From the IMG/VR virus record IMGVR_UViG_3300013102_000005, positions 1 through 64,000 of that record: a stretch of DNA of 64,000 nt. One strand, written 5' to 3'. This document shows, in pieces, positions 10,938-60,536 of this stretch. Numbering within the stretch: position 1 is the stretch's first letter; every line of letters starts with the position of its first letter. Under the pieces are notes generated by a model that was not told the origin of the DNA, did not search any database, and saw only the letters and a program-made list of their open reading frames with translations. The stretch comes from a virus. Made by a program: the position numbers and the translations under genes.

Positions 10938-10967
10938 TTTATAGCACCTGCTAAAATAATCCCGCAA
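10938..10967 (-). promoter_or_regulatory. Sigma70-like promoter for the 10909 gene
   Basis: Minus strand: TTGCGG (10967-10962), an 18-bp spacer, TATAAA (10943-10938). The palindrome TAGCACCTGCTA fills the end of the spacer, so protein bound there would block or reshape the promoter. The -35 is identical to that of the XRE regulator gene. Confidence 0.6.
10942..10953. promoter_or_regulatory. 12-bp operator TAGCACCTGCTA
   Basis: This is a perfect member of the TAGCA-NN-TGCTA family, lying in the intergenic region between divergent genes starting at 10909 (minus) and 11015 (plus), so it could control both. Confidence 0.6.
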
Positions 10968-11014
10968 GCTATTTGCTCTTCATCCCAGATCAAGCCCGTG
11001 CAAGGTGCCGTCGC

Positions 11015-11503
11015 ATGTCCGATCAGAAAGACCCCAATCTACAGCTGTTCCACGTGAGCATTGCGGGCCACTACGGGCCGCCGGTGACCTTGGCCTGCTC
11101 CATCGTCGAGGACACAAACGTCTTGGTCATCGCCCGAGAGGAACCGTTCAAAGAGCGGCGTGATGCGGGATATGCGCTGATCACCAATCAGGACTTGCCG
11201 GAGCGTGACTGGCTGTTCGCCGACGATCATGTTCGAGACTCCATCAATAGCTTCTTCGCCCGGACATCCCGAAGCACCATCGCCATCGTCAATAGCCTTC
11301 AGCGGCATTCACCAGCGCAGGGGATCCAGAAGGACAGCTTTGACGAGCACGGACCTCGGTATCGCCTGATACGAGAAATCACCAATGGCCAGATAGCCGT
11401 GCTAGCTGCTTGCGGATTTGCCGACATCCAGTCCAGCGTCATCCTGGCCCAGTCGCTGGCCGACGACTTTATGGACCTCTACGACATCTACACGATCTCC
11501 TGA
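11015..11503 (+). CDS. Hypothetical protein on the plus strand, divergent from 10909
   Basis: This is a 162-residue acidic soluble protein (MSDQKDPNLQLFHVSIAGHY...). ATG 11015 has AAGGTG about 8 nt upstream; the longer frame from 10973 overlaps the promoter region. Contains ALITNQDLPERDWLFADDHV and a C-terminal helix SSVILAQSLADDFMDLYDIY. I recognise no family. It is one of only three plus-strand genes, and codon use looks ordinary for the phage, unlike the two AT-rich inserts. A divergent partner facing away from an operator often encodes a regulator or a countering activity, but nothing in the sequence proves that. Confidence 0.7.
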   Translation: MSDQKDPNLQLFHVSIAGHYGPPVTLACSIVEDTNVLVIAREEPFKERRDAGYALITNQDLPERDWLFADDHVRDSINSFFARTSRSTIAIVNSLQRHSPAQGIQKDSFDEHGPRYRLIREITNGQIAVLAACGFADIQSSVILAQSLADDFMDLYDIYTIS

Positions 11504-11548
11504 CAGCAGAAGGCCCGCACACGGCAGGCCTCATTCATCATCTGTCAT

Positions 11549-11580
11549 ACGGATGACGTCATGGGTCATTCCTCATCCGT
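11549..11580. promoter_or_regulatory. Inverted repeat ACGGATGA...TCATCCGT with embedded ATGACGTCAT palindrome
   Basis: An 8-bp inverted repeat (11549-11556 with 11573-11580) overlaps the 10-bp palindrome ATGACGTCAT (11553-11562). It lies between the convergent stops at 11503 and 11605, so it may be a bidirectional terminator-like hairpin or a protein site. There is no T-run. Confidence 0.35.
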
Positions 11581-11604
11581 GTGAGGTCAGAACCCTCGTA
11601 GTCG

Positions 11605-12372
11605 TCACGCGGCATGCTCGATCTCCTCCCCGAGCTTAGCCAGGGCGGCCCGGAACGACTCTGCGTTGCGCTCACACAGCTCGGCCTGCTCTTCTTCACC
11701 CTCGGCGCGCCAGATGGGCGCGTTAGTCTCGACGCTGTGCAGTGCGATTCCCAGCACCGTCCGGGCGGACTCCAGTTCGGCGCTATCGAGCATTTCCCCT
11801 GCATCCAGGCGGACCAGCAGCGCATCAGCCTGCTGATCGTTCACGGCATCGAGGACCAGCATCGGTGCCTCACCGGCGCCGGCATCGTCCAGGGCAATGC
11901 CGAGTTCAGTTCGCAGGTTGTCACGGGTAGTCCTGGCTTCCAGGATGCGCTGGTCCAAATAGGTCACGCGCTCGGCCAGCGCTTGCTGGAGACGTGGAGC
12001 GGCCGTGCGAACGGACTTCGGTAGCTCAGCCCTTTGCCTGGCCAGCATGGCCTGGAACCGTTTTTCGTTGGCGCGCGCGGCGGCAGCGATCTCGGCCACG
12101 GCTTCCAGACCGCTCTGGTTCTTGATCGGCAGGTCGCGCTTGTTGAGCAGGACGCGGAAGATGTCGCCGGTCTGCTTCACTTGGAGCGCGATGGTCTGGC
12201 CGCTTGCCAGGGTCAGCAGCGCCTGGCGGAAGCTGATACCGGCACGACGCTGGACGCGCGGATCGAACGAGGTTTGCGCCACTGGCTGGCCAGCCCGCAG
12301 CATGGCCTGGCTGACGCGCTTGAGCGAGCGCTGGGCGTCGCTGGGATTGTCGAAGTCGAACAGAAGATCCAT
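11605..12372 (-). CDS. Dar/polyvalent-like accessory virion protein
   Basis: This is a 255-residue protein. Its N-terminal half has SFDPRVQRRAGISFRQALLT, SGQTIALQVKQTGDIFRVLL and DLPIKNQ, a pattern I associate with small proteins linked to phage polyvalent/DarA-type modules; the C-terminal half is a long coiled coil (about 95-150) and an acidic helical tail. It lies between the spike gene and the InPase/DarA-like gene, which supports a packaged-protein role. The family name is uncertain and no catalytic residues are evident. Confidence 0.5.
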   Translation of the reverse strand: MDLLFDFDNPSDAQRSLKRVSQAMLRAGQPVAQTSFDPRVQRRAGISFRQALLTLASGQTIALQVKQTGDIFRVLLNKRDLPIKNQSGLEAVAEIAAAARANEKRFQAMLARQRAELPKSVRTAAPRLQQALAERVTYLDQRILEARTTRDNLRTELGIALDDAGAGEAPMLVLDAVNDQQADALLVRLDAGEMLDSAELESARTVLGIALHSVETNAPIWRAEGEEEQAELCERNAESFRAALAKLGEEIEHAA

Positions 12373-12444
12373 GGGCAGGGTCTCGAAGGATTTGCCCTAT
12401 GGTGCCGCGCCTGCCGCCCGCCGGCGGACGCACCTTTCCGGCCC

Positions 12445-12960
12445 CTACATCGGCGGACCGACTGGCGCCCCGTCGCCCTGCTCTAGGTGACTATGCTCCT
12501 GGGCGCTGATGCCGTCGGAGGTCATGTCGCCACCCGTTTGGGTCACCGGCCCCTTGATGGTGTGTTGGCTCGCGATCTGGGCGATCGCCTCGGCGGTGAG
12601 CTCCAGCACCGAGCCGCCGACTTGCAGCTTGATCGACTTCCCGGCCTTGATCAGGACGGTGTCGTCCGCAATGAGGGTGAAATTGTCGTGCTCCCAGTGG
12701 CGGGTGCCGACCATGTTCACATCCTGCTGGGCGCGAAAGCCGGTGATGATCGGATAGCGCGGGTCCCCGCTGATGAACGCCACCCAGACCTTGTCGCCGG
12801 GCCTGATGCGGATCTCCGTGTCCTCGCCTCGATCACCGATCGGCAGCTCGATCTCGGCGATCAGGTTGGCGCCCGCGCCATCAGTGAGGCCCGGCAGCTG
12901 GACCTCGCAAGTCTTGGCGCCGCGCGTGTAGGCGGCCACGACAGCAGGATAGCGGCTCAC
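12445..12960 (-). CDS. Baseplate spike (gpV/gp45-like)
   Basis: This is a 171-residue protein. An N-terminal OB-fold-like part (CEVQLPGLTDGAGANLIAEI, then IRPGDKVWVAFISGDPRYPI) is followed by a beta-rich stretch (HDNFTLIADDTVLIKAGKSI) and an apex-like C-terminus with EHSH near 155, a His-x-His-type metal site expected at spike tips, then GAPVGPP. This matches the P2 gpV / baseplate assembly protein V family that pierces the outer membrane on sheath contraction. The start overlaps the hub gene's stop (ATGA), consistent with coupled production of hub and spike. Confidence 0.8.
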   Translation of the reverse strand: MSRYPAVVAAYTRGAKTCEVQLPGLTDGAGANLIAEIELPIGDRGEDTEIRIRPGDKVWVAFISGDPRYPIITGFRAQQDVNMVGTRHWEHDNFTLIADDTVLIKAGKSIKLQVGGSVLELTAEAIAQIASQHTIKGPVTQTGGDMTSDGISAQEHSHLEQGDGAPVGPPM

Positions 12961-13850
12961 GTCGAGAGATCTCCGACCCAGAAGCGGGACAGGGTTTCGG
13001 TAATGCCCTCGCGCGCCCGGAAGCGGTGGGCGCCGGTGATAACCAGCTGCTTGATGCCATTGACGTCCACCACGTCGCCAGCGCGGATGTGCTGGGCCAT
13101 CTGGGAGTTGATGATCCGACGGGTCACCGCCACCCGGCTCAAGTTGTAGAGCATCCGCTCATCATGGTGCGGCATGAAGGCGACCCGACGGGGGATGTCG
13201 TAGTTGCCGCGCACGATGGCGCCGCCACTGTTGACCGAGTAGCCCATGGGGATCTCGTGCCGTTCGAGCAGCTCACTGCCCTGGGCGGCGCTGGAATCGA
13301 ACTGACCAATGCTGTCCACCGGCTCCTGCTGGAGCAGGTTCTGGAGGCGCTCGATGGACATCCGCCCTTCGCGCAGCACCATGGCTGCGCCTTCCTCCTG
13401 TAGGGCGATGGCCAGCGGATAGGTCGGCACGTCGCCGACCAGGGCAGCGAAGCGCGCCACGGTGAAGTCGTTGCCAATGTTCACCCGCGCGCCGCAGGCC
13501 AAGTAGAGGGCGCCGAGCGAGGCCTTGTGCTGGATCACCGCGCGACTACGCGGGCCGGCCAGCGCCTCGAAGCCTTCCAGGAATGCGGTGTAGGTGCCGA
13601 CTTGCAGCGCGTCCTCGCCCTGCACCAGGCCGGCGGGGTGGCCACGCTCGCGTTTCACGATCACGTACTTGAGGTGCTCACGGCCGCACCAGACGGGGGT
13701 GCGGTCGGCCAGCTTGGCCTCCAAGCCGCTCTTGAGCCGCACCGAAAACTCAAGAGTGCGCGGCACCGGGGCGAGGTCCGTCCGCAGGACGGTCTCCAGC
13801 AGCAGGTCGCCGGGCAGCTGGTCCTTGCCGTCGTTGAGGTAGACGTTCAC
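12957..13850 (-). CDS. Baseplate hub protein (gp27/gpD-like)
   Basis: This 297-residue protein starts with GTG at 13850 overlapping the upstream stop as GTGA. Features: VPRTLEFSVRLKSGLEAKL strand at the N-terminus, central helical insert, and C-terminal AGDVVDVNGIKQLVITGAHR with TLSRFWVGDL, typical of hub proteins that form the tube-like collar above the spike. Its place directly upstream of the spike gene is the standard hub-spike order. The family call is by fold pattern and synteny. Confidence 0.7.
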   Translation of the reverse strand: MNVYLNDGKDQLPGDLLLETVLRTDLAPVPRTLEFSVRLKSGLEAKLADRTPVWCGREHLKYVIVKRERGHPAGLVQGEDALQVGTYTAFLEGFEALAGPRSRAVIQHKASLGALYLACGARVNIGNDFTVARFAALVGDVPTYPLAIALQEEGAAMVLREGRMSIERLQNLLQQEPVDSIGQFDSSAAQGSELLERHEIPMGYSVNSGGAIVRGNYDIPRRVAFMPHHDERMLYNLSRVAVTRRIINSQMAQHIRAGDVVDVNGIKQLVITGAHRFRAREGITETLSRFWVGDLST

Positions 13851-15144: not shown

Positions 15145-15147
15145 GGG

Positions 15148-31727: not shown

Positions 31728-32186
31728 CTATCTGGCGGCGGTTTCCGAAGGTGGCGCGTCGTCGCGGATCCGCTTCACCGCAGCGCTTATCCGGCGCAGA
31801 TGCCGCCTGGGTACGAACCAACGGCCTTCGAGATCTCCCAGGTAAGCCAGCAGCAAGCGGATGCCGATCTGCTCGCCGCGCCGGTAGAGCACGTCCTGCA
31901 TGCGCTCGGCATGTCCTACACGCTCGGCTAGCCTGCGGGCACCCAGTAGGGGATGGGGGCCGCCGACGACGTCGTGGATGCGCGTGAGCTCCAGCTGGAG
32001 GCTGGCCACCCGCGTGCGCAATTCCAGATTCAAGGTATCCGCCGTGGCCAGCTTGGCGCGCTCTGCGCGCAGCTTGCTGCGAAGCTCGGCGGCGCAGTCA
32101 TGGCCCATGGGCTGGAGCGGGTGACGCGGGAACTCGCAAATCGGGCAGACGGTGACGCCTGGATCCAGCGGGGCCGGTTTCGTCAT
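31728..32186 (-). CDS. Small zinc-ribbon and coiled-coil protein
   Basis: This is a 152-residue protein; ATG 32186 has AAGGA upstream. N-terminal CPICEFPRHPLQPMGHDC (CxxC...HxxC) should bind zinc, followed by a coiled coil (LRSKLRAERAKLATADTLNL) and a basic C-terminal region. An operator copy at 32225-32236 lies 39 bp upstream, which places it in the early/accessory regulon. The last codons contain the late-type element of the next gene (31741-31748). Confidence 0.65.
   Translation of the reverse strand: MTKPAPLDPGVTVCPICEFPRHPLQPMGHDCAAELRSKLRAERAKLATADTLNLELRTRVASLQLELTRIHDVVGGPHPLLGARRLAERVGHAERMQDVLYRRGEQIGIRLLLAYLGDLEGRWFVPRRHLRRISAAVKRIRDDAPPSETAAR
31741..31748 (-). promoter_or_regulatory. 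Late-type element TCGGAAAC inside the 3' end of the preceding gene
   Basis: Minus-strand TCGGAAAC lies 42 bp upstream of the ATG at 31699, within the last codons of the 31728-32186 gene. It marks the boundary between early-type and structural genes. Confidence 0.3.
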
Positions 32187-32224: not shown

Positions 32225-32236
32225 TAGCAGGTGATT
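32225..32236. promoter_or_regulatory. Operator TAGCAGGTGATT
   Basis: Eleven of twelve positions fit the palindrome family (last A is T). It touches the TAA of the 32236 gene and is 39 bp upstream of the ATG at 32186. Confidence 0.45.
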
Positions 32237-32515: not shown

Positions 32516-32527
32516 TAGCAGTTGATA
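32516..32527. promoter_or_regulatory. Operator TAGCAGTTGATA (proximal of a pair)
   Basis: A perfect mixed member of the family, 47 bp upstream of the ATG at 32469, and 24 bp from its partner at 32540. Confidence 0.6.
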
Positions 32528-32539: not shown

Positions 32540-32551
32540 TATCGCCTGCTA
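32540..32551. promoter_or_regulatory. Operator TATCGCCTGCTA (distal of a pair)
   Basis: One mismatch from the family (G for A at position 5). It lies 3-5 bp beyond the terminase stop at 32557. Together the pair forms an extended inverted arrangement TTGTAGCA...TGCTACAA in an AT-rich stretch. Confidence 0.55.
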
Positions 32552-34249: not shown

Positions 34250-34329
34250 GATGTGGGTATCCAGAAAAAGTCAGGAAACCCTACTGGCGCCCAGATAAGG
34301 GCTAGCTGTTCACTTTCCCATCCAAGCGC

Positions 34330-34358
34330 TTCGGCAAGATGATTACTGCTGGTATGCT
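34330..34358 (+). promoter_or_regulatory. Possible promoter for the FRG gene
   Basis: Plus strand TTCGGC (34330-34335), 17-bp spacer, TATGCT (34353-34358) preceded by TG as an extended -10. The resulting start of transcription suits ATG 34396. Confidence 0.35.
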
Positions 34359-34395
34359 CGCAGTATTAACTCATGCAGGCCAGGATCGCAAAGTA

Positions 34396-35307
34396 ATGAT
34401 GTATATAGAAGAGCTGGCATTTAACAGCGTGGAAGAACTACTTAATCATGTGGTTCCATGGGGTTCTAACCCAGAACTCGACGGTTATATTTTTCGAGGG
34501 CATAGCCAGGAGTCGTATCTACTGGTGCCGCTTGCACTTCGGTCTGACAAATTGGATTTGCTATGCAACGCGGCTGGTTTCACTATAAATGATAAGCGTG
34601 AAATGAACCTTTTCGACCAGGTGCAAGCCGAATATCAAATATTGAGGAGATTCTATCGCTTGGCAGACCAGAGGGGATTGCCTGTTCCGATCAGTACTCG
34701 CATTCGCGAAGATCTGGCATCAAAATCCTCGTCAATCATGAATTTCAAAGCCAAGCACACTGATACTTGGATTCCACCGGACCTGCATGAAGCAGCGGCA
34801 CTAGCCCAGCATTATGGTATGCCCACCAGACTTCTCGATTGGACATACGACATTTTTGTAGCGATGCATTTTGCATTCAAAGGTGCGATTAAAAAGGAGG
34901 ATAACCTTTGTATCTGGGCGCTAAATATGGCCCACCTTTCGTGGCTAACTCCAACTGTAGAGGCTGTAGGTGTTGACTTCGTGACTCCTCATTATGCCGG
35001 CAATCCGCATTTAAACGCCCAAAAAGGCCTGTTTACTCACATGCCTAGTTTTTTCCCCCATACTGTACAGATCCATCATGATGTAAATAACGTCGAAAAA
35101 ATAACTGGGCCAATCGATAGAGCGCCATTTGACGAAACGCTACGGGGGCGATTTGCCAATATAGAAGAAAATATATTTAAGAAATTCATATTGCCTTGCT
35201 CTGAGGCCAAGAAGGGGCTCCAGATACTGGACAACCTAGGCTATGACGAGTCTAGGATATATCCAGGGTATAAAGGTGTAGCTAATCAGCTGCTACACCC
35301 TAATTAA
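34396..35307 (+). CDS. FRG-domain protein in an AT-rich cassette
   Basis: This is a 303-residue protein. Phe33-Arg34-Gly35-His (DGYIFRGHSQ) gives the FRG signature and LAQHYGMPTRLLDWTYDIF (136-154) is the second conserved FRG block. ATG 34396 fits the family start and a possible promoter; an earlier ATG at 34339 exists. FRG proteins are widespread in bacteria and occur in defence islands, with unknown biochemistry. Codon use is AT-rich, unlike the flanks, and the strand is opposite its neighbours. It converges on a membrane-protein gene with a 15-bp 3' overlap, suggesting a two-gene exclusion or defence cassette (inference). Confidence 0.8.
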   Translation: MMYIEELAFNSVEELLNHVVPWGSNPELDGYIFRGHSQESYLLVPLALRSDKLDLLCNAAGFTINDKREMNLFDQVQAEYQILRRFYRLADQRGLPVPISTRIREDLASKSSSIMNFKAKHTDTWIPPDLHEAAALAQHYGMPTRLLDWTYDIFVAMHFAFKGAIKKEDNLCIWALNMAHLSWLTPTVEAVGVDFVTPHYAGNPHLNAQKGLFTHMPSFFPHTVQIHHDVNNVEKITGPIDRAPFDETLRGRFANIEENIFKKFILPCSEAKKGLQILDNLGYDESRIYPGYKGVANQLLHPN

Positions 35308-35856
35308 GCTACTCAGCCAGCCGGCTATTGCTGCACTAATAGTCTGTGCACGCTCATATGTCTCGGCAGGAAATGCAAGGTATAGCGATCCCCAGATAGC
35401 TAATACAGCAGACATTACACTGTAGCCCGCCCCTTGCGCCAGAACCCTTGGCAATGTGACTTCGTCATGATATTGAATTTGGGCTAGGCAGCTATCGACC
35501 CTGGCTCTATTTATTTTATAAAGCATTTCGAAACGCGCCTTGTCCTCATCAACTACCTTTCTTAGCTCTTCAATGTCTTTAGTAATCTGTGCAAGCGGAT
35601 TTTTTGTATTAATGCCCATCAGGCTTGCGGTATATCTGAACGTATAGGACGGCGCGTCATTCCACTCCGGTAGGTATTCTTCAAACTTCGCATCTTTTGC
35701 AGATCTCGCCTTGATAGCATTGCGGGCTGCCAGATAAATAGTAATCGCCGAAGAGATTCCTACCAGCAACATTCCATACGCGAGAAAGTAATTATTGGGG
35801 AATAGGCCAAGCACGACCGTTCCAACTAGCACAGATATGAATGCGAGAACGGCCAT
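35293..35856 (-). CDS. Membrane protein with paired transmembrane segments, partner of FRG gene
   Basis: This is a 187-residue protein. It has two hydrophobic segments at the N-terminus (residues about 2-19 and 23-45), a soluble helical middle (DIEELRKVVDEDKARFEMLY) and another pair of hydrophobic stretches near the C-terminus (SVMSAVLAIWGSLYLAF; ISAAIAGWLSSLI). It is AT-rich like the FRG gene and overlaps it tail to tail by 15 bp, so the two were probably acquired together. No family recognised. Effector, anchor or sensor roles for the FRG protein are all possible. Confidence 0.65.
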   Translation of the reverse strand: MAVLAFISVLVGTVVLGLFPNNYFLAYGMLLVGISSAITIYLAARNAIKARSAKDAKFEEYLPEWNDAPSYTFRYTASLMGINTKNPLAQITKDIEELRKVVDEDKARFEMLYKINRARVDSCLAQIQYHDEVTLPRVLAQGAGYSVMSAVLAIWGSLYLAFPAETYERAQTISAAIAGWLSSLIRV

Positions 35857-35900
35857 GAATGGTTATCCATTGAGGAGGCAGGACGGGCCCGCACTGTATC

Positions 35901-36293: not shown

Positions 36294-36755
36294 TCACCCC
36301 TTGGCGCCGAGGTAGGCCCGGCAGGCCTGGCCAGCTCGCACGCACAGCTCCAGATCGAACAGCCCGAAGTGGCACCGGTCGGGCGTCAGCCCCAGCTGCT
36401 CGGCAAGCCAGCGATAGGCCGCGCTTCTGGAGAGGTGCCCATCCCGCCAGATCAGCTCAAAGGGCGCCTTGTGCAGCTCGCGAGCCTTGCGTAGGGACTC
36501 ATCGGCCAGGGTGCCCAGCGGCAGATTGGTGGAGGGGTGAAGCCCTACCCGTGCATCGCACCCGGTGCAGCCGTAGACCCAGGGCCAGTCGCCGTAGCTG
36601 CGGCCGTTGTAGATGTCGTGGTGATGCTTGATCACCACCGCTCCACCGCAGCAGGGACACACAGTCGGGATGGCCAACGGGTCTTTCACCCGCGCGATCG
36701 CCCGCCGACTCGGATTGCTGGGCGTCTTGACCGCCGACGCGACCTCACTGCTCAT
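36294..36755 (-). CDS. DUF3268-like zinc-finger protein
   Basis: This is a 153-residue protein. CPCCGGAVV...YGCTGCDARVGLHP with NLPLGTLADESLRKARELHK, and FELIWRDGHLSRSAAYRWLA, fits the zinc-finger-containing DUF3268 family found in phages and mobile elements. ATG 36755 overlaps the ParB-like gene's stop (36745) by 11 nt, so translation may be coupled. Probably nucleic-acid binding; function unknown. Confidence 0.75.
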   Translation of the reverse strand: MSSEVASAVKTPSNPSRRAIARVKDPLAIPTVCPCCGGAVVIKHHHDIYNGRSYGDWPWVYGCTGCDARVGLHPSTNLPLGTLADESLRKARELHKAPFELIWRDGHLSRSAAYRWLAEQLGLTPDRCHFGLFDLELCVRAGQACRAYLGAKG

Positions 36756-37728
36756 CGCCGTCCTCCCGCGCCTTCTCGGCTGCCTTGAGCTCGGCCTTGC
36801 GCCGGTTCTCCTCGTGGGTTTCGCGCACGTGCCGGGCCGTGGCCACCACCGCATTGAGCGAGCGGATGGTCAGGGGCACCGTCATGCTGCCCAGGACCGT
36901 CTCACCGGTGCGGTAGCGCTCCACCTGCTCCAGGATCGACTCGGGCAGCTCGGCCACGAGCTGGAGCGAGGCGGCCAGCAGGTCCTCGGACAGAGCGCGC
37001 GGGATGGCTGGGGGCAGGGCGGGCAGTGCCTTGCGGGTCTTGCGCTCCTCCAGCATCTTGGGAGTGACCTTGGCGCCGCCGGCTTCCTCGCTGATCGTGC
37101 GGATCTCGGCGGCCGCCTCCTCCCCAAATGCTCGAAGGGCCTTCACGGCGGTGCCGGGGGCGATGACGTCCTGGTCGATGAGGTCGCGCACGTCCTCGCC
37201 GCCATGGGCAATCTTGAGCAGCTGCTCCACGTACTGGCGAGAGAACCCCACGAGCTTGGCAATCTGGGCGGCTGGTAGGCCGTCGGTTTCGGCGAAGTCA
37301 CGCACCACATCGGCCAGTTCGACCGGATCCAGCGGCTCCTGGCTCTGGGAGGTGACAATGCGCGCCTTGCACTCCAGCTCGTTGCCGATGAAGGGTTTCA
37401 ACCCGATCAGCGGGATGGTGTAGCCCCAGGACTCCAGCAGGCGCAGCGCACGAATGCGGCGGTGCCCCTCGATCACCTTGAGTCCGCCCTCGGCCCGCGC
37501 CTGGACCTCGATTTGCGGCAGGACGTTGTTGATGTCCACCAGCGTTTTGGTCGCCTTGTCCTTGATCAGGCTGCGAGCGCTGCGCTCGATGCTGGCGTCC
37601 AGCTTGGGACCCTCGCGGCGCTTGTTGAAGCCGGGCGTGAAATGGAACTGGTCCAGGGCGGCAAACATGCCTTTGTCGGTGCGCTTGATGATCTTCTCGT
37701 TGATCATCTTTTGGATCGAATTACTCAT
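36745..37728 (-). CDS. ParB-like DNA-binding protein
   Basis: This is a 328-residue protein. The ParB/Srx fold is seen in LPQIEVQARAEGGLKVIEGH with GHRRIRAL at 88-95 (the GxRR-type box), followed by a helix-turn-helix (LPAAQIAKLVGFSRQYVEQL, 151-170) and a long helical C-terminus. The ParB box binds CTP in true ParB proteins and nicks DNA in others. No ParA-like ATPase is seen nearby. ATG 37728 is chosen over the longer frame. In phages such proteins may partition, transcribe, or protect genomes; which applies here is unknown. Confidence 0.75.
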   Translation of the reverse strand: MSNSIQKMINEKIIKRTDKGMFAALDQFHFTPGFNKRREGPKLDASIERSARSLIKDKATKTLVDINNVLPQIEVQARAEGGLKVIEGHRRIRALRLLESWGYTIPLIGLKPFIGNELECKARIVTSQSQEPLDPVELADVVRDFAETDGLPAAQIAKLVGFSRQYVEQLLKIAHGGEDVRDLIDQDVIAPGTAVKALRAFGEEAAAEIRTISEEAGGAKVTPKMLEERKTRKALPALPPAIPRALSEDLLAASLQLVAELPESILEQVERYRTGETVLGSMTVPLTIRSLNAVVATARHVRETHEENRRKAELKAAEKAREDGDEQ

Positions 37729-38889: not shown

Positions 38890-39174
38890 CTACATGCGTC
38901 GCCGCTGGCGACCCGCTGCGGGACGCATCCGCACCGTCCCCTGGGTGCCATGCCGGCCACTGAGCGTCCGCCACGCCATCGTGTAGCCCATGCCGGCCAG
39001 GCGCATGGACATGCGGCGAACCCTACGCAGATCGGCCTGCGGATCGAGATCACCGTAGGTCTTGAGCGTGAGGGTGCGCACGACGTCGCCCGAGTCGTAG
39101 CCGACGAACTCGAACACGACCGCATTGGCGGTTGGGAAGGGGGTGGATACCTCAGCAAGCGGGCGGGACTGCAT
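38890..39174 (-). CDS. Small basic hypothetical protein
   Basis: This is a 94-residue protein: beta-rich N-terminal half (NAVVFEFVGYDSGDVVRTLT), basic C-terminus ending QRRRM. No family recognised. Upstream lies an operator pair at 39254/39276, making it a likely early transcript. Confidence 0.6.
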   Translation of the reverse strand: MQSRPLAEVSTPFPTANAVVFEFVGYDSGDVVRTLTLKTYGDLDPQADLRRVRRMSMRLAGMGYTMAWRTLSGRHGTQGTVRMRPAAGRQRRRM

Positions 39175-39253: not shown

Positions 39254-39265
39254 AAGCATATGCTA
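39254..39265. promoter_or_regulatory. Operator AAGCATATGCTA
   Basis: One mismatch (first T is A). Its partner starts exactly 22 bp away at 39276. Upstream of the ATG at 39174. Confidence 0.5.
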
Positions 39266-39275: not shown

Positions 39276-39287
39276 TATCGCATGATA
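39276..39287. promoter_or_regulatory. Operator TATCGCATGATA
   Basis: One mismatch (G for A at position 5). It lies next to an AT-rich minus-strand TATAAA, 7 bp from the stop of the gene at 39295. Confidence 0.5.
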
Positions 39288-39294
39288 TGAATAA

Positions 39295-39525
39295 TCAGAT
39301 GGACATTTGGCGCCTGATCCACTGGAATAGCAGTATCCAAAGCATGACAGGCCAGATGACGACACACAGCAGGCTTGTAGCAAATGCTGATTTTATTGCG
39401 GACGCTCTCCCGCGTTCCTCCACCAGCTGGAGAAAGTCGGGATCGGCAAGGAGGTCGTGGCGATCGAGCCACAGGTACAGCGCCCAGAGCAGGGCGCCGA
39501 CCAGGTAGAGCATGAACCAATTCAA
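39295..39525 (-). CDS. Small membrane protein, two transmembrane segments
   Basis: This is a 76-residue protein. Two hydrophobic segments (LYLVGALLWALYLWL at 6-20; FATSLLCVVIWPVMLWILLF at 48-67) flank a charged loop. Start is TTG 39525 or ATG 39513; no strong ribosome site decides. Could be a holin-like or envelope protein, but no lysin lies beside it. Confidence 0.55.
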   Translation of the reverse strand: MNWFMLYLVGALLWALYLWLDRHDLLADPDFLQLVEERGRASAIKSAFATSLLCVVIWPVMLWILLFQWIRRQMSI

Positions 39526-41852: not shown

Positions 41853-41937
41853 GTCGGCTCCGTTCAGAAACAGCGAGGGCGCCGAACCGAAGTGCGGCGC
41901 CCTCATTCTTGGGCGGAGCCACTATGCCTCTTTTTTC

Positions 41938-41949
41938 TATCACATGCTA
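41938..41949. promoter_or_regulatory. Operator TATCACATGCTA
   Basis: A perfect mixed-type family member. Its last three bases are the stop codon of the gene at 41947-42132. Confidence 0.55.
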
Positions 41950-42132
41950 CATTTTTTGGGAGGGTATCGGCGCTATCGCACCGTATCGCCGGAGCAGTTG
42001 CTCAGCTCGCTGGCGTCGCTCTCGCTCCGCAGCAAGATCCGCTACGGCCTTGCGGTACAGGCCGCCAAAGCAGGCCAGGAACAGCGCAGAGCCGGCAAGC
42101 ATGCCGAGCGCCAGGACGAGGATTGGTGACAT
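41947..42132 (-). CDS. Small single-pass membrane protein
   Basis: This is a 61-residue protein. A transmembrane segment at residues 4-25 (ILVLALGMLAGSALFLACFG) is followed by a charged coiled tail (AERERRQRAEQLLRRYG). It resembles an inner-membrane spanin by layout, but there is no outer partner. An operator lies 32 bp upstream. Confidence 0.6.
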   Translation of the reverse strand: MSPILVLALGMLAGSALFLACFGGLYRKAVADLAAERERRQRAEQLLRRYGAIAPIPSQKM

Positions 42133-42163
42133 CGTGCAACCCTTGGAGGTAGTTTCGGGTATG

Positions 42164-42175
42164 TATCATCTGATA
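42164..42175. promoter_or_regulatory. Operator TATCATCTGATA
   Basis: A perfect TATCA-NN-TGATA palindrome, 32 bp upstream of the ATG at 42132, in the gap after the small HTH gene. Confidence 0.6.
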
Positions 42176-42213
42176 CAAGTGTTCGGCATTGCAGGCGCAG
42201 CTCTGGCCAGCGA

Positions 42214-45101: not shown

Positions 45102-46337
<1,236 letters not shown>

Positions 46338-47224: not shown

Positions 47225-47236
47225 CATCAGGTGATA
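47225..47236. promoter_or_regulatory. Operator CATCAGGTGATA
   Basis: One mismatch (first T is C). Exactly 22 bp from the partner at 47247. Ahead of the 47161 gene. Confidence 0.55.
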
Positions 47237-47246: not shown

Positions 47247-47258
47247 TAGCAGATGCTA
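47247..47258. promoter_or_regulatory. Operator TAGCAGATGCTA
   Basis: A perfect palindrome, identical to copies at 49942 and 56071, and flanked by the same TTGTAG...CTATTG context on the minus strand. Confidence 0.65.
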
Positions 47259-49941: not shown

Positions 49942-49953
49942 TAGCAGATGCTA
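49942..49953. promoter_or_regulatory. Operator TAGCAGATGCTA
   Basis: A perfect palindrome. A degenerate copy CATCGGGTGAGG lies 22 bp away at 49920-49931, keeping the pair spacing. It lies just past a terminator and about 90 bp ahead of the ATG at 49853. Confidence 0.6.
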
Positions 49954-50052: not shown

Positions 50053-50064
50053 CATCAGGTGCTA
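50053..50064. promoter_or_regulatory. Operator CATCAGGTGCTA
   Basis: One mismatch (first T is C). It overlaps the TAG stop of the helicase gene. Confidence 0.45.
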
Positions 50065-51900
50065 TAGCAAATCGAACTGAGCGACAGTGGGCTGCACGGG
50101 TGCCGGCACGGCCTTTTCCGGGCGGGGCAGTACCGGGCGGGCAGGTTCAGACGCCGCCACCTCGGGCAACGCCTCGCCCTGGGCCACCAGATAGCGCCGC
50201 GCCAGGTGCTTGAGCTGGTTCTCACCAAGGTCGGCTCGCTCGACCAGATGCTGGCCAGGGTTGCGCACGCCCTCGATCTGCTCACGCTTCACGCCCAGGA
50301 CCTCGCACATGATCGGGTCGGTGCCGTCACTGGAGAGCGGGAAGAACGCTTGCACGGGCCGCTGCTGGCCATCGCGGTGGACTCGGCCAATGTTCTGCTC
50401 GATCACACCTGGCGACCAGTCCAGCTCGGCATGCACTGTGGTCGCGCACACGTGCTGTAGCCCATCGACGCCGGCGCCGGCGCGAACCGAGATCAGCATT
50501 ACCCGTGCCTGGCCAGCCACGAAGGCGTCCTTGGCGGCCTGCTTCTGATTGGGCGACTCGCTGCCCGTGTAGAGCACAGGGCTGTAGGTGGCCAGCGCCT
50601 CCTGGAGGATCGAATAGACCTCCCGGTGCCAGGCGAAGACCAGCACCTGCTCGCCCTGCTCCAGCAGCATGCGGGTGAACTCCGCCACGAAGGGCGCCTT
50701 CGCCACACCGGTGGCCTGGCGCATCAGCCGGTCGAACTCGCCGGCGGCCTGCATATGCTCGCCCCGGTAGCGCTCGTTCGCATCCAGGATCGTCTTGGCC
50801 AACTCCACCGCGTCGGTCTTCACCCGGCGCAGCACGCCCTCGTCGTGCTCGATCTCGTGGGTGATCTTGGTCAGCTCGGGCAGCTCGCGACCGACCTCCT
50901 CGCGGGTGCGGCGTAGCATGATCCCCTCGCGGCGCAGGTACTCGCCGAACATTTCGGCATCAGCCAGGCGGGGCTTGTCGTCGCCATAGTCGCGCACGCA
51001 CCACTCGCGCAGGAACTCGTCCCGGTCGCCCAGGCAGTCCGGCAGGATCACGTCGATGACGTTCCAGAACTCGCCGCCGTAGTTGTAGATGGGGGTCGCG
51101 GACAGGCCCATGCAGTACCGGGCGTGGGCGCGCAGGTGCTTGGCCGCCGTGTAGATCTCGGTGCCGGAGCTGCGCAGCTGCTGGCACTCTTCAAAGACCA
51201 CGTACTGCACCAGCTCGGCCAGCACCTCGGCCCAGCCGCGTAGCTTGTGATAGCTGATCAGGATCACGTCAGGCAGCGTGTCCCAGAGGTCCGTGCGGCG
51301 CTGACGCGGCTGCTTGATCAGCGGGTAGGGCGAACCCTTGTTCACGTGGTGCACGCGCAACCCAGGGCAGAACTCCGCCAGCTTCTCTGGCCAGTGGTTC
51401 GGCAGCGAGGCAGGGTAGACCACCACCGTGGGCAGATTGCCCGCCAGCGCCATCGCGCACATGGCGGTCACGGTCTTGCCCAGGCCGAGATCGTCGGCGA
51501 CCAGCAGGCCGCCCTTGATCATCATCTGGGCGGCCGCATAGGCCTGGTACTGGCGTTCGGGCTTGGCCAGGCTGAATGCGGGCACTTCGCGCCGGCCAGC
51601 CAGGAGATCGGCCAGGTCCTGCTCGGTGCGCACGTGCTCGGCAGCCAGGCGCTCCATGCGATCGCGGGTGGCCAGGTCCATGGTCATTGGATAGCGCTGG
51701 GTGAACCAGAGCAGCTCGCGGCTGTTCTCGGCGCTGGCCAGCAAGGGCAGGGTATTGGCGGCATGCTGCGGCGCGCGGGGGAAGACCCGCTTGAGCCTGG
51801 CGCGAACCTGGGGGTCGGCGGAGACGATCCAGCTGCGGCCGTCGAAGGCGATCGAGCCGAACGCGCGGACAGTGAGGGCCTGGGGTAGGGCTGCGGTCAC
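50062..51900 (-). CDS. SNF2/DEAD-like superfamily 2 helicase
   Basis: This is a 612-residue protein. Motif I DDLGLGKT at 136-143 (SNF2-type), motif II FEECQQ near 236 (D of DExx replaced by E), motif III GLSATP at 265-270, and C-terminal helicase motifs (HREVYSILQEALATYSPVLY; VCATTVHAELDWSPGVIEQN, IGRVHRDGQ). It uses ATP to remodel or translocate on DNA; role in phage replication or recombination is likely. The extreme C-terminus, TVAQFDLL, resembles a bacterial beta-clamp-binding motif (QxxLF type). Confidence 0.85.
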   Translation of the reverse strand: MTAALPQALTVRAFGSIAFDGRSWIVSADPQVRARLKRVFPRAPQHAANTLPLLASAENSRELLWFTQRYPMTMDLATRDRMERLAAEHVRTEQDLADLLAGRREVPAFSLAKPERQYQAYAAAQMMIKGGLLVADDLGLGKTVTAMCAMALAGNLPTVVVYPASLPNHWPEKLAEFCPGLRVHHVNKGSPYPLIKQPRQRRTDLWDTLPDVILISYHKLRGWAEVLAELVQYVVFEECQQLRSSGTEIYTAAKHLRAHARYCMGLSATPIYNYGGEFWNVIDVILPDCLGDRDEFLREWCVRDYGDDKPRLADAEMFGEYLRREGIMLRRTREEVGRELPELTKITHEIEHDEGVLRRVKTDAVELAKTILDANERYRGEHMQAAGEFDRLMRQATGVAKAPFVAEFTRMLLEQGEQVLVFAWHREVYSILQEALATYSPVLYTGSESPNQKQAAKDAFVAGQARVMLISVRAGAGVDGLQHVCATTVHAELDWSPGVIEQNIGRVHRDGQQRPVQAFFPLSSDGTDPIMCEVLGVKREQIEGVRNPGQHLVERADLGENQLKHLARRYLVAQGEALPEVAASEPARPVLPRPEKAVPAPVQPTVAQFDLL

Positions 51901-56048: not shown

Positions 56049-56060
56049 CATCAGGTGATA
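56049..56060. promoter_or_regulatory. Operator CATCAGGTGATA
   Basis: One mismatch (first T is C). Exactly 22 bp from the partner at 56071; identical copy at 47225. Confidence 0.6.
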
Positions 56061-56070: not shown

Positions 56071-56082
56071 TAGCAGATGCTA
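56071..56082. promoter_or_regulatory. Operator TAGCAGATGCTA
   Basis: A perfect palindrome with the same flanks (TTGTAG...CTATTG on the minus strand) as copies at 47247 and 49942. Confidence 0.65.
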
Positions 56083-56239: not shown

Positions 56240-57166
56240 CTACAGGTTGCGCCGAGGGGCAGCGGCACCGGTGAATTTAGCCCGGTTGGCCTCCGCCTGC
56301 TTCATCGAACGCTCATACAGGGCATCCAGCTCGGCCGCGCTCACCAGATTGACCACGGTCTCCTGGCGCTCGTCGTACAGGCGCAGAATCTTCATCAGGG
56401 TCTCACGGGCCCGTTCCTGGTTGTGCACCATCAGCTCCAGACCTTCCTTGGTGCGCTTCACGCCGGCATACAGTGCCTGAGCGGACGGAGACAGGTTGCG
56501 CGTGTCCTTGAACACCTCGCGCTCGATGCCTTCGCCGTAGCACTCCGGGCAGCTCTCGACCGGCTCCTTGCGTGGATCGTAGCCCGTCCCGCCCTCGGGA
56601 TCGGGTTCGGGCGGTAGGTCAGCGTCGCTGGCGTCAGGGTTGCGCTCCAGGGCCTTGCGCAGGTCCTCCTCCCACTTGCGCTGCCGGTTGCGCCACTCGC
56701 CTGGCTTGTACTGATACAGGTGATCCTCCCCGTAGCAGAAGCGGCAGCACTCCCGGCGCATCTCCATGAGTTCGTTCGGGTCAGCGAACGCAACGGCCAC
56801 CAGCTGCTCTAGCACGCGCGTCTGGAGGTCTTCGCTCTTCTCGAACAGGACCTTGATGCGTAGCGCCATCAGCGCCCGGACCTTAGCGGAATTTAGCAGG
56901 CGATGCGCACTCGCACATGCCCCGCCGGTGCTCTGGACGTTGTAGACCGCCATGTAGGCCTTGGTCTGGTTGTAGGTCCGCAGGTACTCATCCACGAACT
57001 GGACGTGTTGCGGATCCATGCCAGAGACCAGCTCATCCTCAGCGGACAGCTTGGGATCGAGCACCACGGGAGCAGGCGCCTCCTCCTTGGCCGTAGCCTT
57101 GGATCGAGGAGGACGCTTGGGCTTGGCCTTGGGAGCTGGCTTATCCGCCTTGGGCTTGGGAGCCAT
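56240..57166 (-). CDS. terS: Terminase small subunit with a DnaJ-type zinc motif
   Basis: This is a 308-residue protein. Basic Pro/Lys-rich N-terminus (1-30), then DPQHVQFVDEYLRTYNQTKA...ASAHRLLNSAKVRAL, the helix-turn-helix of terminase small subunits that bind pac DNA. An insert has CRFCYGED (around 145) and CPECYGEG (around 215), CxxCxGxG half-motifs as in DnaJ zinc domains. The C-terminus is a coiled coil with TerL-contact-like helices. Unlinked to terL (22 kb away). ATG 57166 is used. Confidence 0.8.
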   Translation of the reverse strand: MAPKPKADKPAPKAKPKRPPRSKATAKEEAPAPVVLDPKLSAEDELVSGMDPQHVQFVDEYLRTYNQTKAYMAVYNVQSTGGACASAHRLLNSAKVRALMALRIKVLFEKSEDLQTRVLEQLVAVAFADPNELMEMRRECCRFCYGEDHLYQYKPGEWRNRQRKWEEDLRKALERNPDASDADLPPEPDPEGGTGYDPRKEPVESCPECYGEGIEREVFKDTRNLSPSAQALYAGVKRTKEGLELMVHNQERARETLMKILRLYDERQETVVNLVSAAELDALYERSMKQAEANRAKFTGAAAPRRNL

Positions 57167-57322
57167 AGGGAGAACCTTGCAGGAATGAGAGGAACACGAC
57201 CACGGAGCGCCCTGCTGATCGAGCAATGGGAACCGTAGGCGATGCGGGGTATCGAGCCTTGCCGACTAGGGCAGGTATGTGAGCACCAGGGTATGAGGTG
57301 CTACGGGACGAAGCGGAGGGGG

Positions 57323-57330: not shown

Positions 57331-57355
57331 AAGGGATCGCCCTATAGGGGTGGTA

Positions 57356-57892: not shown

Positions 57893-57980
57893 ACGTCACC
57901 TGGGTGATGGGTGAAACCATGGAAGAAAAACGCATGCTGGACCTCGGTAACGGTTGAATGGGTCCCGGTTACTCCATCCG

Positions 57981-58119: not shown

Positions 58120-58161
58120 CCCAGGCGGCGGGTTTCAGTGCGCATCGGCCTGCGCATTCAC

Positions 58162-58238: not shown

Positions 58239-58263
58239 ACACTGCCGTGGGTGCAATCGGGGG

Positions 58264-58761
58264 TCAGGCGGCGGCCCGCGCCTCTTGTGCAAGCGGCTGG
58301 CAGAAGTTGCGAGCGACCTGATCCAGGTACTTGGCGCCCACCAGGCCGAGGGTCTCAAAGCCGGCCAGCTCCTCAACGCTGAACTGCACCAAGGAGACGA
58401 GATCCACGACGCCGGCCGGATACAGCACCTGGCGATATTCGTAGGGCACCCGCATATCCAGCAGGGAGGGATTACCGAAATCCACCTCCGGGCCATCCGC
58501 CAGGCACAGGCCATGAGCACGAAGCAGGTTGTGGATGTGTGCAGCGCCCCGGTAGCGGATACCCGGAATGTCGATGAGCTCTTCCAGGCTGGTGCACTGG
58601 AGATCGACGACGGTGAGGATGTTGGCGCGAGCCAGGTCGCTCAGCTGCTTGGTGCAAAGACCCAGGGTGGCCAGGTCGAGCGCGGCGATCAGCGCCCGAT
58701 CAAGATCGGCGACGACGATGGCGGCGGCCAGGGAGGTGGTGCTAACACTGTCTTGGGTCAT
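58264..58761 (-). CDS. Protein with two RNA-polymerase alpha-CTD-like helix-hairpin-helix domains
   Basis: This is a 165-residue protein; ATG 58761. Residues 24-88 (LIAALDLATLGLCTKQLSDL, ILTVVDLQCTSLEELIDIPG, IHNLLRAHGLCL) align in pattern with the C-terminal domain of RNA polymerase alpha. A second similar unit lies at about 104-153 (YRQVLYPAGVVDLVSLVQFS, VEELAGFETLGLVGAKYLDQ). Alpha-CTD binds DNA UP elements and activators; a free two-domain copy might redirect or mimic polymerase. Leader element 2 lies 19 nt upstream. Other HhH roles remain possible. Confidence 0.7.
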   Translation of the reverse strand: MTQDSVSTTSLAAAIVVADLDRALIAALDLATLGLCTKQLSDLARANILTVVDLQCTSLEELIDIPGIRYRGAAHIHNLLRAHGLCLADGPEVDFGNPSLLDMRVPYEYRQVLYPAGVVDLVSLVQFSVEELAGFETLGLVGAKYLDQVARNFCQPLAQEARAAA

Positions 58762-58779
58762 GGGTTCACGTCTTTGCGT

Positions 58780-58826
58780 GGCTGTATGGGGGAGGCACCT
58801 GAGCCAGGGGACTCTCCGATACAGCC
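58780..58826 (-). ncRNA. Leader RNA element 2
   Basis: GGCTGTAT (minus, 58826-58819) pairs with ATACAGCC (58787-58780). Nested pairs GGAG/CTCC and CCTG/CAGG form a single 47-nt hairpin. It ends 19 nt before the ATG at 58761. Confidence 0.5.
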
Positions 58827-58855
58827 CGACCGCCGCAGCGGCCAGGCATAGCGCA

Positions 58856-59275
58856 TCAGCGGCGAGCGGCGCGCGGCTTCTTGGGCTTGGTGTCGGGCAC
58901 CTGGGCCGGATCGGTCTTGGCCACCGCCGGGCCGGCATCGGCCAGCAGGGTGTGGCGCGGCAGGCCCTCGGGGGTGACAGCCATGTGACGGCACTTCACG
59001 ACGGTCGCCGGGGATCTCTGGCCAGGAAGGTCTGCAACGTCGTAAACCACCAGCACCAGGTGATCACCCACCTCGGGCAGTACGCCGCCCACGAAGGTGT
59101 CCGCGATCTTGTCGTTCTCGACAGCGACGCCGTGAGGGATGTACTCGGGCTCGGGCTGGCGACTGAGCCAGGATTGCGCCAGCGCGTGGATGGCAGGCGC
59201 CGAGTTCGGGTCTTGCAGCGCGCCATTGAGGGCGTATTGCAGTTGCTGGGGCGTCATGTCTTGCGGCTGATTCAT
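58856..59275 (-). CDS. Hypothetical protein downstream of leader element 3
   Basis: This is a 139-residue protein (MNQPQDMTPQQLQYALNGAL...) with helical N-terminus, a beta-like middle (VGDHLVLVVYDVADLPGQRS) and a basic end (KPKKPRAARR). An ATG at 59308 would add 11 residues but abuts the leader hairpin. No family recognised. Same direction as the alpha-CTD-like gene. Confidence 0.6.
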   Translation of the reverse strand: MNQPQDMTPQQLQYALNGALQDPNSAPAIHALAQSWLSRQPEPEYIPHGVAVENDKIADTFVGGVLPEVGDHLVLVVYDVADLPGQRSPATVVKCRHMAVTPEGLPRHTLLADAGPAVAKTDPAQVPDTKPKKPRAARR

Positions 59276-59308
59276 GTCGGTCTCACTGGTCTCGGGTTGC
59301 TGCTGCAT

Positions 59309-59364
59309 GGCTGCATGGGTCAGGACGCCGGCGCCGGTCGCGCTGCGTACTCACCGATGCACCC
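59309..59364 (-). ncRNA. Leader RNA element 3
   Basis: GGGTGCAT (59364-59357) pairs with ATGCAGCC (59316-59309) with one bulge. The inner part contains the palindrome CCGGCGCCGG. It shares the TGCAT-CGGTGAG start with the other two. It is 33 nt upstream of the ATG at 59275. Confidence 0.45.
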
Positions 59365-59472
59365 TTGCGGGGTTCGGGCCGGTTGCCACTCCCGGCGATC
59401 ACCCTCACCAGCGTCGCTGGCCAGGGCATCGGCTTCACCCTGTGCGGCCACTGCCAGCCAGGGAGGTCTTGG

Positions 59473-59538
59473 GCGAGGCGGTGGAGTTGAACCACCGAGT
59501 CGGGATGATGAGTCCCGTCTTGCACCGGCATGCCTCGC
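59473..59538 (-). tRNA. tRNA-like gene, anticodon CAT (Met-like), with reduced D arm
   Basis: The 66-nt minus-strand sequence has a 7-bp acceptor stem (GCGAGGC/GCCTCGC), a perfect 5-bp anticodon stem (CGGGA/TCCCG) with loop CTCATCA (anticodon CAT), and a 5-bp T stem (GGTGG/CCACC) with loop TTCAACT. The D arm is only a 3-bp TGC-CGGT-GCA hairpin. CCA follows the acceptor directly without a discriminator. It is either an unusual functional tRNA or a tRNA-derived element. Confidence 0.5.
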
Positions 59539-59585
59539 AGTGCTCATGCCCTCTTGACGCCCGTTGCCGGGGAGGACTTACGACT

Positions 59586-59727
59586 GGGTCCCGCCATTGG
59601 GCCAGCCCACTCCGTTGGGCGACCCTGCCGAGGAGGTTGCCGGCAGGCGTATCAGCTGTGTGGGATGGTGGCCCTACGCTCTCCACACCCACGTATCCAG
59701 GCTATCCCTCCGCGAGGGCCGCCCTGG
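59586..59727 (-). ncRNA. Array of consecutive stem-loops in a 475-bp gap without a gene
   Basis: Paired segments on the given strand: GGGTC/GACCC (59586-90/59621-25) enclosing GCCCA/TGGGC (59605-09/59616-20); CTGCCG/CGGCAG (59625-30/59641-46); GTGTGG/CCACAC (59658-63/59683-88); CCAGG/CCTGG (59697-701/59723-27) enclosing CCCTC/GAGGG. No open frame fits. Together with the tRNA-like gene just downstream it looks like a structured RNA locus. Confidence 0.4.
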
Positions 59728-59750
59728 CACGGTGTTTCCAATCCCTCAGC

Positions 59751-60494
59751 TCAAGCGAACAAGTCGCCGCTCGGGCTGCGTTCGGCCTGGGCCCGGTCGC
59801 GCAGGTCGGCGCGATCGGCGATCAGGTCGATGCTGATTTGCTTAACGTTCTGCGCGGTGGACTGGCGCATCCGGCGATCAAACTCACCGTTGGCCACCTG
59901 GAACTCGCGCTCGATGATTTCGCAGTGCTTCAACTCGCCCGCGATACGGGCATCCGCACCGGTGATGACGTCTTCAAGGCCGCGCAGAGCCGCCTCCAGC
60001 GTTGCCGAGCCGCGCCACTCCTCCTCGTACTCGGGATTGAGCTGGGCCATGCGGCGATGGGCGTGCTTCACGTCCTTGAGCTTGATGGCGATACGCTGGA
60101 GGTCGGAGCGGTCCTGGTTCTGGCCCTGGAGGGCGACACCCACCTGCTGGGCCAGATACTCGTGGTAGCGGCTGGTGGACTCGGCGATGGTGTTGGCCAC
60201 CAGCCTGACGCGAAAGCTCTGGTTGTTCTCGGCAGCGTCGGCCAGGGGGTCGTCGCTGGTGCCGGACAGGTAGTCCAGAGGTACTGCGAACAGCTCGGCC
60301 ATGCCGATCATGTCCAGCAGCTTGGGCATGCGCTCACCGCTCTCCCAAAGACTGATCTGGGTAGCGTTTTCGTGTCCCAAGTGATGCGCAACTGCGTCCT
60401 GGCTCATGTCCGCCAATTTGCGGGCAGCGTAGATGCGGCAACCTATGATCTGGCGCAGCTTTGCGGCTCTTTCGGCAGCGGTCGGAATGGCCAT
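59751..60494 (-). CDS. XRE-family helix-turn-helix regulator
   Basis: This is a 247-residue protein. Residues 10-75 (LRQIIGCRIYAARKLADMSQ, DAVAHHLGHENATQISLWES, GERMPKLLDMIGMAELF) form a lambda-repressor/XRE HTH, with VPLDYLSGTSDDP following, typical of the family. The remaining 165 residues are an unassigned effector or multimer domain. Operator TAGCAAATGATA at 60525-60536 overlaps the -10 of its promoter, so self-regulation is likely and it is the leading candidate for the operator-binding protein. Confidence 0.8.
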   Translation of the reverse strand: MAIPTAAERAAKLRQIIGCRIYAARKLADMSQDAVAHHLGHENATQISLWESGERMPKLLDMIGMAELFAVPLDYLSGTSDDPLADAAENNQSFRVRLVANTIAESTSRYHEYLAQQVGVALQGQNQDRSDLQRIAIKLKDVKHAHRRMAQLNPEYEEEWRGSATLEAALRGLEDVITGADARIAGELKHCEIIEREFQVANGEFDRRMRQSTAQNVKQISIDLIADRADLRDRAQAERSPSGDLFA

Positions 60495-60524
60495 GGACGA
60501 CGTCTCTCATGGGGTGAATTTCTG

Positions 60525-60536
60525 TAGCAAATGATA
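60525..60536. promoter_or_regulatory. Operator TAGCAAATGATA
   Basis: A perfect mixed-type family member 31 bp upstream of the XRE ATG. It contains the -10 box of the promoter at 60531-60559. Confidence 0.65.

What the first reader, a model, noticed from the sequence alone, without database searches (positions are those of the whole stretch)
10942..60536. Genome-wide family of about fifteen 12-bp palindromic operators
TAGCA-NN-TGCTA, TATCA-NN-TGATA or mixtures with 0-1 mismatches occur at 10942, 32225, 32516, 32540, 39254, 39276, 41938, 42164, 47225, 47247, 49942, 50053, 56049, 56071 and 60525. All are intergenic or on a stop codon, and nearly all lie upstream of small early/accessory genes; none precedes the baseplate-portal block. 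This is far above chance and implies one dimeric regulator controlling a multi-promoter regulon, recalling the dispersed stoperator sites of temperate mycobacteriophages.
Basis: partly seen in the sequence, partly recalled or inferred. Interest (0 to 1): 0.78.

Follow-up and report, generated by a model that had tools for sequence, protein, structure and literature searches.

The report
Dispersed repressor operators of a phage-plasmid
About twenty copies of one short palindrome sit just upstream of gene groups across a phage that appears to live as a plasmid, almost certainly as docking sites for its own lysogeny repressor; this resembles what phage P1 does, but with a different protein and a different DNA signal.

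Summary
All 15 listed sites fit TAKCA-NN-TGMTA with 0-1 mismatch and lie outside genes. A PWM finds 20 intergenic sites where 0.7 are expected (maximum of 200 shuffles: 4). Three more lie outside the window (67745, 67915, 67935). The record is a 93.8-kb phage-plasmid of the P1 lineage (P1-like portal, DarA relative, Rep_3 initiator, ParA, integrase). The sites head transcription units: Cro-like gene, divergent recT operon, XRE repressor, terminase small subunit, several accessory operons. None lies upstream of rep, par or int. Five tandem pairs are spaced 20-24 bp (chance about 0.1 pair), like operators bound cooperatively by dimers. The best reading is a genome-wide repression regulon of the XRE protein (59751-60494), probably shared with the Cro-like protein at 67198-67713. 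The nearest relative, pPRS08-11306 (XRE 46%, Cro-like 54%), has three sites with the same ATCANNTGAT core; four more distant relatives have none. They are not stoperators: they are symmetric and promoter-proximal. They differ from P1: no C1 homologue, no C1 operators. Binding itself is untested.

The parts
10942..10953 (.). operator TAGCACCTGCTA between divergent genes (33 bp from start 10909 -, 62 bp from start 11015 +)
   Evidence: right half overlaps an extended -10 (TGCTATAAA) towards the - gene
32225..32236 (.). operator TAGCAGGTGATT (1 mismatch), 39 bp upstream of 31728-32186 (-)
32516..32527 (.). operator TAGCAGTTGATA, pair with 32540, upstream of start 32469 (-), head of a run leading to tail and portal genes
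32540..32551 (.). operator TATCGCCTGCTA (1 mismatch), pair spacing 24
39254..39265 (.). operator AAGCATATGCTA (1 mismatch), upstream of 38890-39174 (-)
39276..39287 (.). operator TATCGCATGATA (1 mismatch), pair spacing 22
39378..39389 (.). additional operator-like site TAGCAAATGCTG, not in the first list
41938..41949 (.). operator TATCACATGCTA, 86 bp upstream of start 41852 (-)
42164..42175 (.). operator TATCATCTGATA in the same intergenic stretch (41853-42213)
47225..47236 (.). operator CATCAGGTGATA (1 mismatch), proximal member, inside the spacer of the -35/-10 candidate TTGAGA-17-GAAAAT (-)
47247..47258 (.). operator TAGCAGATGCTA, distal member, pair spacing 22, upstream of start 47161 (-)
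49942..49953 (.). operator TAGCAGATGCTA, 89 bp upstream of start 49853 (-); a degenerate partner lies 22 bp nearer the gene
50053..50064 (.). operator CATCAGGTGCTA (1 mismatch), overlaps the stop codon of 50062-51900 (-)
56049..56060 (.). operator CATCAGGTGATA (1 mismatch), proximal member of a promoter resembling the 47-kb one
56071..56082 (.). operator TAGCAGATGCTA, distal member, pair spacing 22, upstream of start 55985 (-)
57292..57303 (.). weak site TATGAGGTGCTA, 126 bp upstream of the terminase small subunit gene
60525..60536 (.). operator TAGCAAATGATA, 31 bp upstream of the XRE gene (autoregulation); identical in L003, a relative about 95% identical here
59751..60494 (-). XRE-type (HTH_3) regulator, 247 aa, best candidate for the repressor
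   Evidence: Pfam HTH_3 E 5e-9; PHROG transcription regulators; NCBIfam RstR below cut-off
56240..57166 (-). terminase small subunit
   Evidence: PHROG 51, E 6e-27

Best explanation
The sites are operators of a phage-wide lysogeny regulon in a P1-lineage phage-plasmid. A dimer of the XRE-family repressor (59751-60494) binds the 12-bp palindrome TAKCANNTGMTA, probably about 18 bp with its flanks (TTGTAKCANNTGMTACAA). Tandem pairs two helical turns apart bind two dimers cooperatively. Bound repressor covers the -35/-10 region and silences, at one time, the divergent early promoters (Cro-like/replication and recT operons), the terminase small subunit, several accessory operons and its own gene. 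The plasmid-maintenance genes (rep, par, integrase) carry no sites and stay on in the lysogen. On lytic entry the Cro-like protein 67198-67713 probably acts at the same sites. Shown: sites, symmetry, spacing, placement, regulator genes. Inferred: who binds, repression, cooperativity, Cro competition.
For: 20 intergenic PWM sites against 0.7 expected; top palindrome in the unbiased search, 12 of 12 intergenic. Twelve of 43 called transcription units have a site within 150 bp of their first gene, and rep, par and int have none. Five pairs at 20-24 bp, null mean 0.13. Putative extended -10 elements (TGCTACAAT, TGCTATAAA, TGCTACATT) overlap the right half-site at several promoters. A site lies 31 bp upstream of the XRE gene, and sites lie on both sides of the Cro-like/recT divergence. 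Phage-plasmid nature: Rep_3 initiator, ParA and integrase, P1-family portal, DarA relative. The closest relative pPRS08-11306 (XRE 46%; Cro-like 54%) has three ATCANNTGAT sites in a GGAATCANNTGATTCC setting, one directly upstream of recT; four more distant relatives have none.
Against: No binding data. Both XRE and Cro-like genes are conserved in pPRS08-11306, so the comparison does not tell which protein binds. In the related phage Rb1 a separate CI lies at the recT divergence and the XRE orthologue sits elsewhere, next to the terminase gene, so the XRE could be a different, late-acting regulator. Sigma-70 promoter matches in the region scanned are no more frequent than in shuffles (2 against 2.3). 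The pPRS site set is small (three), and its XRE upstream region has only a weak match. Gene starts rest on a codon-model caller I wrote.
Confidence: 0.68

Rival explanations
1. The sites are operators, but the main binder is the Cro-like protein 67198-67713 or another phage regulator, and the XRE protein is a separate, perhaps late, regulator next to the terminase gene.
For: The Cro-like gene is first in the leftward early operon with a site 32 bp upstream, is conserved in pPRS08-11306 at 54%, and resembles solved Cro proteins weakly. In Rb1 a CI gene with dispersed TACCYGCRGGTA palindromes coexists with an XRE orthologue.
Against: No other CI candidate was found at the recT divergence in this phage; the XRE has its own site 31 bp upstream; CI and Cro usually share operators, so this rival overlaps with the main reading.
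Confidence: 0.22
2. The sites belong to a host regulator such as LexA (SOS boxes) that the phage exploits.
For: Phage P1 itself carries a LexA site (annotation); host boxes in phages are known.
Against: The consensus does not look like the Pseudomonas or Xanthomonas LexA boxes I recall (CTGT-N8-ACAG, TTAGTA-N6-TACTAA; from memory). Related phage-plasmids of Pseudomonas and a Xanthomonas phage lack the motif. The host of this record is unknown.
Confidence: 0.05
3. The sites are partition (parS-like) or replication iteron repeats of the plasmid state.
For: The phage has ParA and Rep_3, and related plasmids have palindrome arrays beside parA.
Against: In this phage a different palindrome, ATGACGTCAT / CGTCATNNNNATGACG, clusters at the par operon and after rep; TAKCANNTGMTA does not occur there.
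Confidence: 0.02
4. The sites act as stoperators that stop elongating polymerase inside operons.
For: A few sites (32225, 50053, 39378) lie between co-directional genes (gene table).
Against: Sites are palindromic, not oriented, and most head transcription units within 150 bp of a start.
Confidence: 0.03

Closest known systems
Phage P1 C1 repressor and its 22 dispersed operators (PMC8546580)
   Same: Same kind of logic and count: about 20 operators scattered over a phage-plasmid genome, at promoters of separate operons, including the repressor's own; the phages share a portal family.
   Different: P1 operators are 17-bp asymmetric (ATTGCTCTAATAAATTT) and bound by C1; here they are palindromic, often in tandem pairs, and no C1 homologue or C1 operator was found.
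Lambda-type CI/Cro switch
   Same: Palindromic operators in tandem pairs about two turns apart (20-24 bp) at divergent early promoters with a Cro-like first gene; XRE-type repressor.
   Different: Operators are spread over about 57 kb instead of two control regions; the repressor gene lies about 7 kb from the divergence and no S24/LexA-type autoprotease domain was detected.
Cluster A mycobacteriophage stoperators (PMC9283540)
   Same: More than twenty repressor sites distributed across a temperate phage genome.
   Different: Stoperators are asymmetric 13-mers, oriented with transcription, bound by a monomer; these are palindromes at transcription-unit heads.
SPbeta MrpR and the SPBRE element (PMC10516654)
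   Same: A master repressor bound at a repeated element in several intergenic promoter regions of one prophage.
   Different: MrpR has a tyrosine-recombinase fold and a 15-bp element; here the candidate is an XRE helix-turn-helix protein.

Membership tests
P1 C1 dispersed-operator immunity | C1 repressor homologue | tested here: not met
   phmmer of P1 C1 against all six frames: no hit up to E 10
P1 C1 dispersed-operator immunity | 17-bp asymmetric operator ATTGCTCTAATAAATTT | tested here: not met
   no match with fewer than 4 mismatches, two with 4
P1 C1 dispersed-operator immunity | about 20 operators dispersed over the genome at separate promoters | tested here: met
P1-lineage phage-plasmid | P1-type portal, plasmid replication and partition genes | tested here: met
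   portal 27% to P1 Prt, E 9e-28, and 68% to pPRS08-11306; Rep_3; ParA
Mycobacteriophage stoperators | asymmetric site oriented with transcription | tested here: not met
   sites are dyad symmetric
Mycobacteriophage stoperators | stops transcription elongation | not testable with these tools
   needs read-through reporters
Lambda-type CI/Cro switch | palindromic operators, tandem, about two helical turns apart | tested here: met
   five pairs at 20-24 bp
Lambda-type CI/Cro switch | divergent early promoters with a cro-like first gene | tested here: inconclusive
   67198-67713 (-) against recT (+), sites 67745, 67915, 67935; layout met, but the Cro assignment rests on weak hits and synteny
Lambda-type CI/Cro switch | repressor with C-terminal S24/LexA-like autoprotease | tested here: not met
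   only an N-terminal HTH in Pfam; model all-helical but low confidence, pLDDT 57
parS/iteron repeats | clustered at par or rep genes | tested here: not met
   a different palindrome holds that place
SPbeta SPBRE/MrpR | regulator with tyrosine-recombinase fold | not tested
   an integrase exists at 76064-77188 but binding cannot be tested here

The most novel reading that the evidence does not exclude
Phage-plasmids of the P1 lineage each run a genome-wide regulon of dispersed operators, but the repressor and the operator sequence have been replaced in different branches: C1 with asymmetric sites in P1, TAKCANNTGMTA here, GGAATCANNTGATTCC in pPRS08-11306, TACCYGCRGGTA with a CI in Xanthomonas phage Rb1. 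Some twenty scattered sites would then have to change specificity together with the protein, which would make the evolution of multi-site immunity directly testable.
Probability: 0.4. Interest if true: 0.58.

Novelty: new variant of a known kind. Interest (0 to 1): 0.42.

Why it matters
It predicts, from sequence alone, the immunity system and the lysogeny regulon of a P1-lineage phage-plasmid known only from a viral contig collection, and gives a concrete operator for reporters and immunity tests. It also shows that the dispersed-operator plan of P1 can be served by an unrelated repressor with symmetric sites, which bears on how immunity specificity with many scattered sites changes.

Tried and rejected
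XRE in genome contigs gave nothing, in viral contigs only L003, about 95% identical and 7.6 kb long; the XRE alignment was too diverse to scan; recT gave one 49% relative without the motif. Palindromes enriched in pDR133, pKF715C and pSM1 (TATCTNNAGATA, TAGCTA-N5-TAGCTA, ACTTGCGCAAGT) first looked like parallel operators but lie mainly at or near their parA genes, so were read as partition sites. AlphaFold models of the XRE and Cro-like proteins were single-sequence and low confidence (pLDDT 57 and 56), so no fold search was run. The P1 C1 homologue search was negative.

Full report
Setting. The window is bases 1-64000 of a 93,777-b IMG/VR virus record. I read the remaining bases in two overlapping stretches and called genes with a codon model. 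The record is a temperate phage-plasmid. It has a Rep_3 initiator at 80939-81811, ParA at 77573-78223 and an integrase at 76064-77188. Early genes include RecT and exonucleases on the + strand from 67968, and O- and P-like replication genes at 64648-66400 on the - strand. The portal is 68% identical to that of Pseudomonas plasmid pPRS08-11306 and 27% to P1 Prt, and 7539-9692 resembles the P1 head protein DarA. So the record belongs to the P1 lineage in the broad sense.

The sites are real. All fifteen coordinates fit TAKCANNTGMTA with 0-1 mismatch. Window shuffles give 0.31 matches for TATCANNTGATA with one mismatch against 8 seen. The reversed-pattern control on the whole record gives 1 against 21. 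Because intergenic DNA is AT-richer, I repeated the test on intergenic DNA only: 20 PWM sites against a mean of 0.7 and a maximum of 4 in 200 shuffles. A seed-free scan for palindromes enriched outside genes put TAGCANNTGCTA first, 12 of 12 intergenic; that p value (2e-9) is before correction for the many seeds tried. The PWM was built from these sites, so the shuffle comparison is somewhat favoured; the fixed-consensus tests are less so.

Anatomy. Half-site information is high over TAKCA (A at position 2 in 40 of 40, C at position 4 in 39 of 40), the two central bases are free, and outer flanks prefer TTG on an AT-rich background, giving TTGTAKCANNTGMTACAA. Five pairs are spaced 20, 22, 22, 22 and 24 bp centre to centre; random placement in intergenic DNA gives 0.13 such pairs on average. 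Read in gene direction, the right half-site TGMTA often runs into a -10-like hexamer: TGCTATAAA before 10909, TGCTACAAT before 32469, TGCTACATT before the Cro-like gene with TTGGCA 17 bases upstream, and TGCTACAAA before recT. At 47 kb and 56 kb, which look like copies of one another, the proximal operator lies in the spacer of a TTGNNA-17-GAAAAT candidate; 49.9 kb has the same layout with TTGAAA-17-GAAGAT and a degenerate proximal site. An automated promoter scan of 46.9-60.7 kb was no richer than shuffles, so promoter overlap is an inference.

Placement. Sites lie within 150 bp of the first gene of 12 of 43 called transcription units: 10909, 11015, 32469, 39174, 41852, 47161, 49853, 55985, the terminase small subunit, XRE, Cro-like and recT. 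None lies at rep, par, integrase or the 82-94 kb block.

Who binds. The XRE protein 59751-60494 has a clear HTH_3 domain and a site 31 bp upstream of its start. A second regulator, 67198-67713, is the first gene of the leftward early operon; its resemblance to Cro rests on weak hits (phrog_35 E 0.009; PDB 8co2 E 0.17) and on position. Its orthologue sits in the same place in pPRS08-11306 (54%). In pPRS08-11306, whose XRE is 46% identical, the exact core ATCANNTGAT occurs three times, all outside genes or at a gene end, inside GGAATCANNTGATTCC or close to it, one of them upstream of recT. Rb1, pKF715C, pDR133 and pSM1, with XRE identity of 24-30%, have none. This links the core to the XRE and Cro-like pair but does not separate the two.

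Comparison. P1 C1 has 22 operators dispersed over P1, 17 bp and asymmetric (PMC8546580). Here neither C1 nor its operator is present. Mycobacteriophage stoperators are asymmetric 13-mers oriented with transcription (PMC9283540), unlike these. SPbeta MrpR is another master repressor at several intergenic elements (PMC10516654). Xanthomonas phage Rb1, a relative by portal (42%), has a different dispersed palindrome, TACCYGCRGGTA, at eight intergenic places including both sides of its CI gene. The finding is thus a new variant of a known kind: a dispersed-operator regulon with symmetric, paired operators and an XRE repressor.

Limits. No binding or expression data exist; the host is unknown; only one informative relative of intermediate distance was found; gene starts are computed.

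Noticed in passing
record 77227-77278, 78226-78370, 81840-81908 (outside the window); window 11543-11562: A second palindrome family, ATGACGTCAT / CGTCATNNNNATGACG, clusters around the parA operon and just after the rep gene, with one copy at 11543-11562; probably the partition site of the plasmid state.
   Followed up: partly
Xanthomonas phage Rb1 (PQ569993.1): 4719, 9081, 13958, 15859, 82775, 84380, 84927, 89199: Eight intergenic copies of TACCYGCRGGTA, on both sides of the CI gene and dispersed elsewhere: apparently a separate dispersed-operator regulon.
   Followed up: partly
window 45102-46337: RtcB-type RNA ligase gene; the DNA is 73% identical over about 0.7 kb to a Caulobacter phage gene, and NCBIfam's best match is an intein-containing RtcB model although this protein is only 411 aa.
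   Followed up: no
window 36745-37728: A ParB-like protein (phrog_1033) far from the parA operon.
   Followed up: no
window 34250-35900: A stretch of about 1.6 kb with GC near 0.5 and no confident gene between the terminase large subunit and the next operon; it holds a one-mismatch site at 35284.
   Followed up: no
window 1001-3000: A low-GC stretch (0.45-0.47) with a 626-aa + strand ORF (1127-3007) in a 64% GC phage, suggesting recent acquisition.
   Followed up: no
window 59471-59538: ARAGORN reports a tRNA-Met on the - strand in the gap after the XRE gene; Rfam at gathering threshold does not confirm it.
   Followed up: no
CP018759.1 (L004-L006): pPRS08-11306 (114,250 bp) repeats its beginning from base 94242 on, so the real circle is probably about 94.2 kb: an assembly overlap.
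   Followed up: partly
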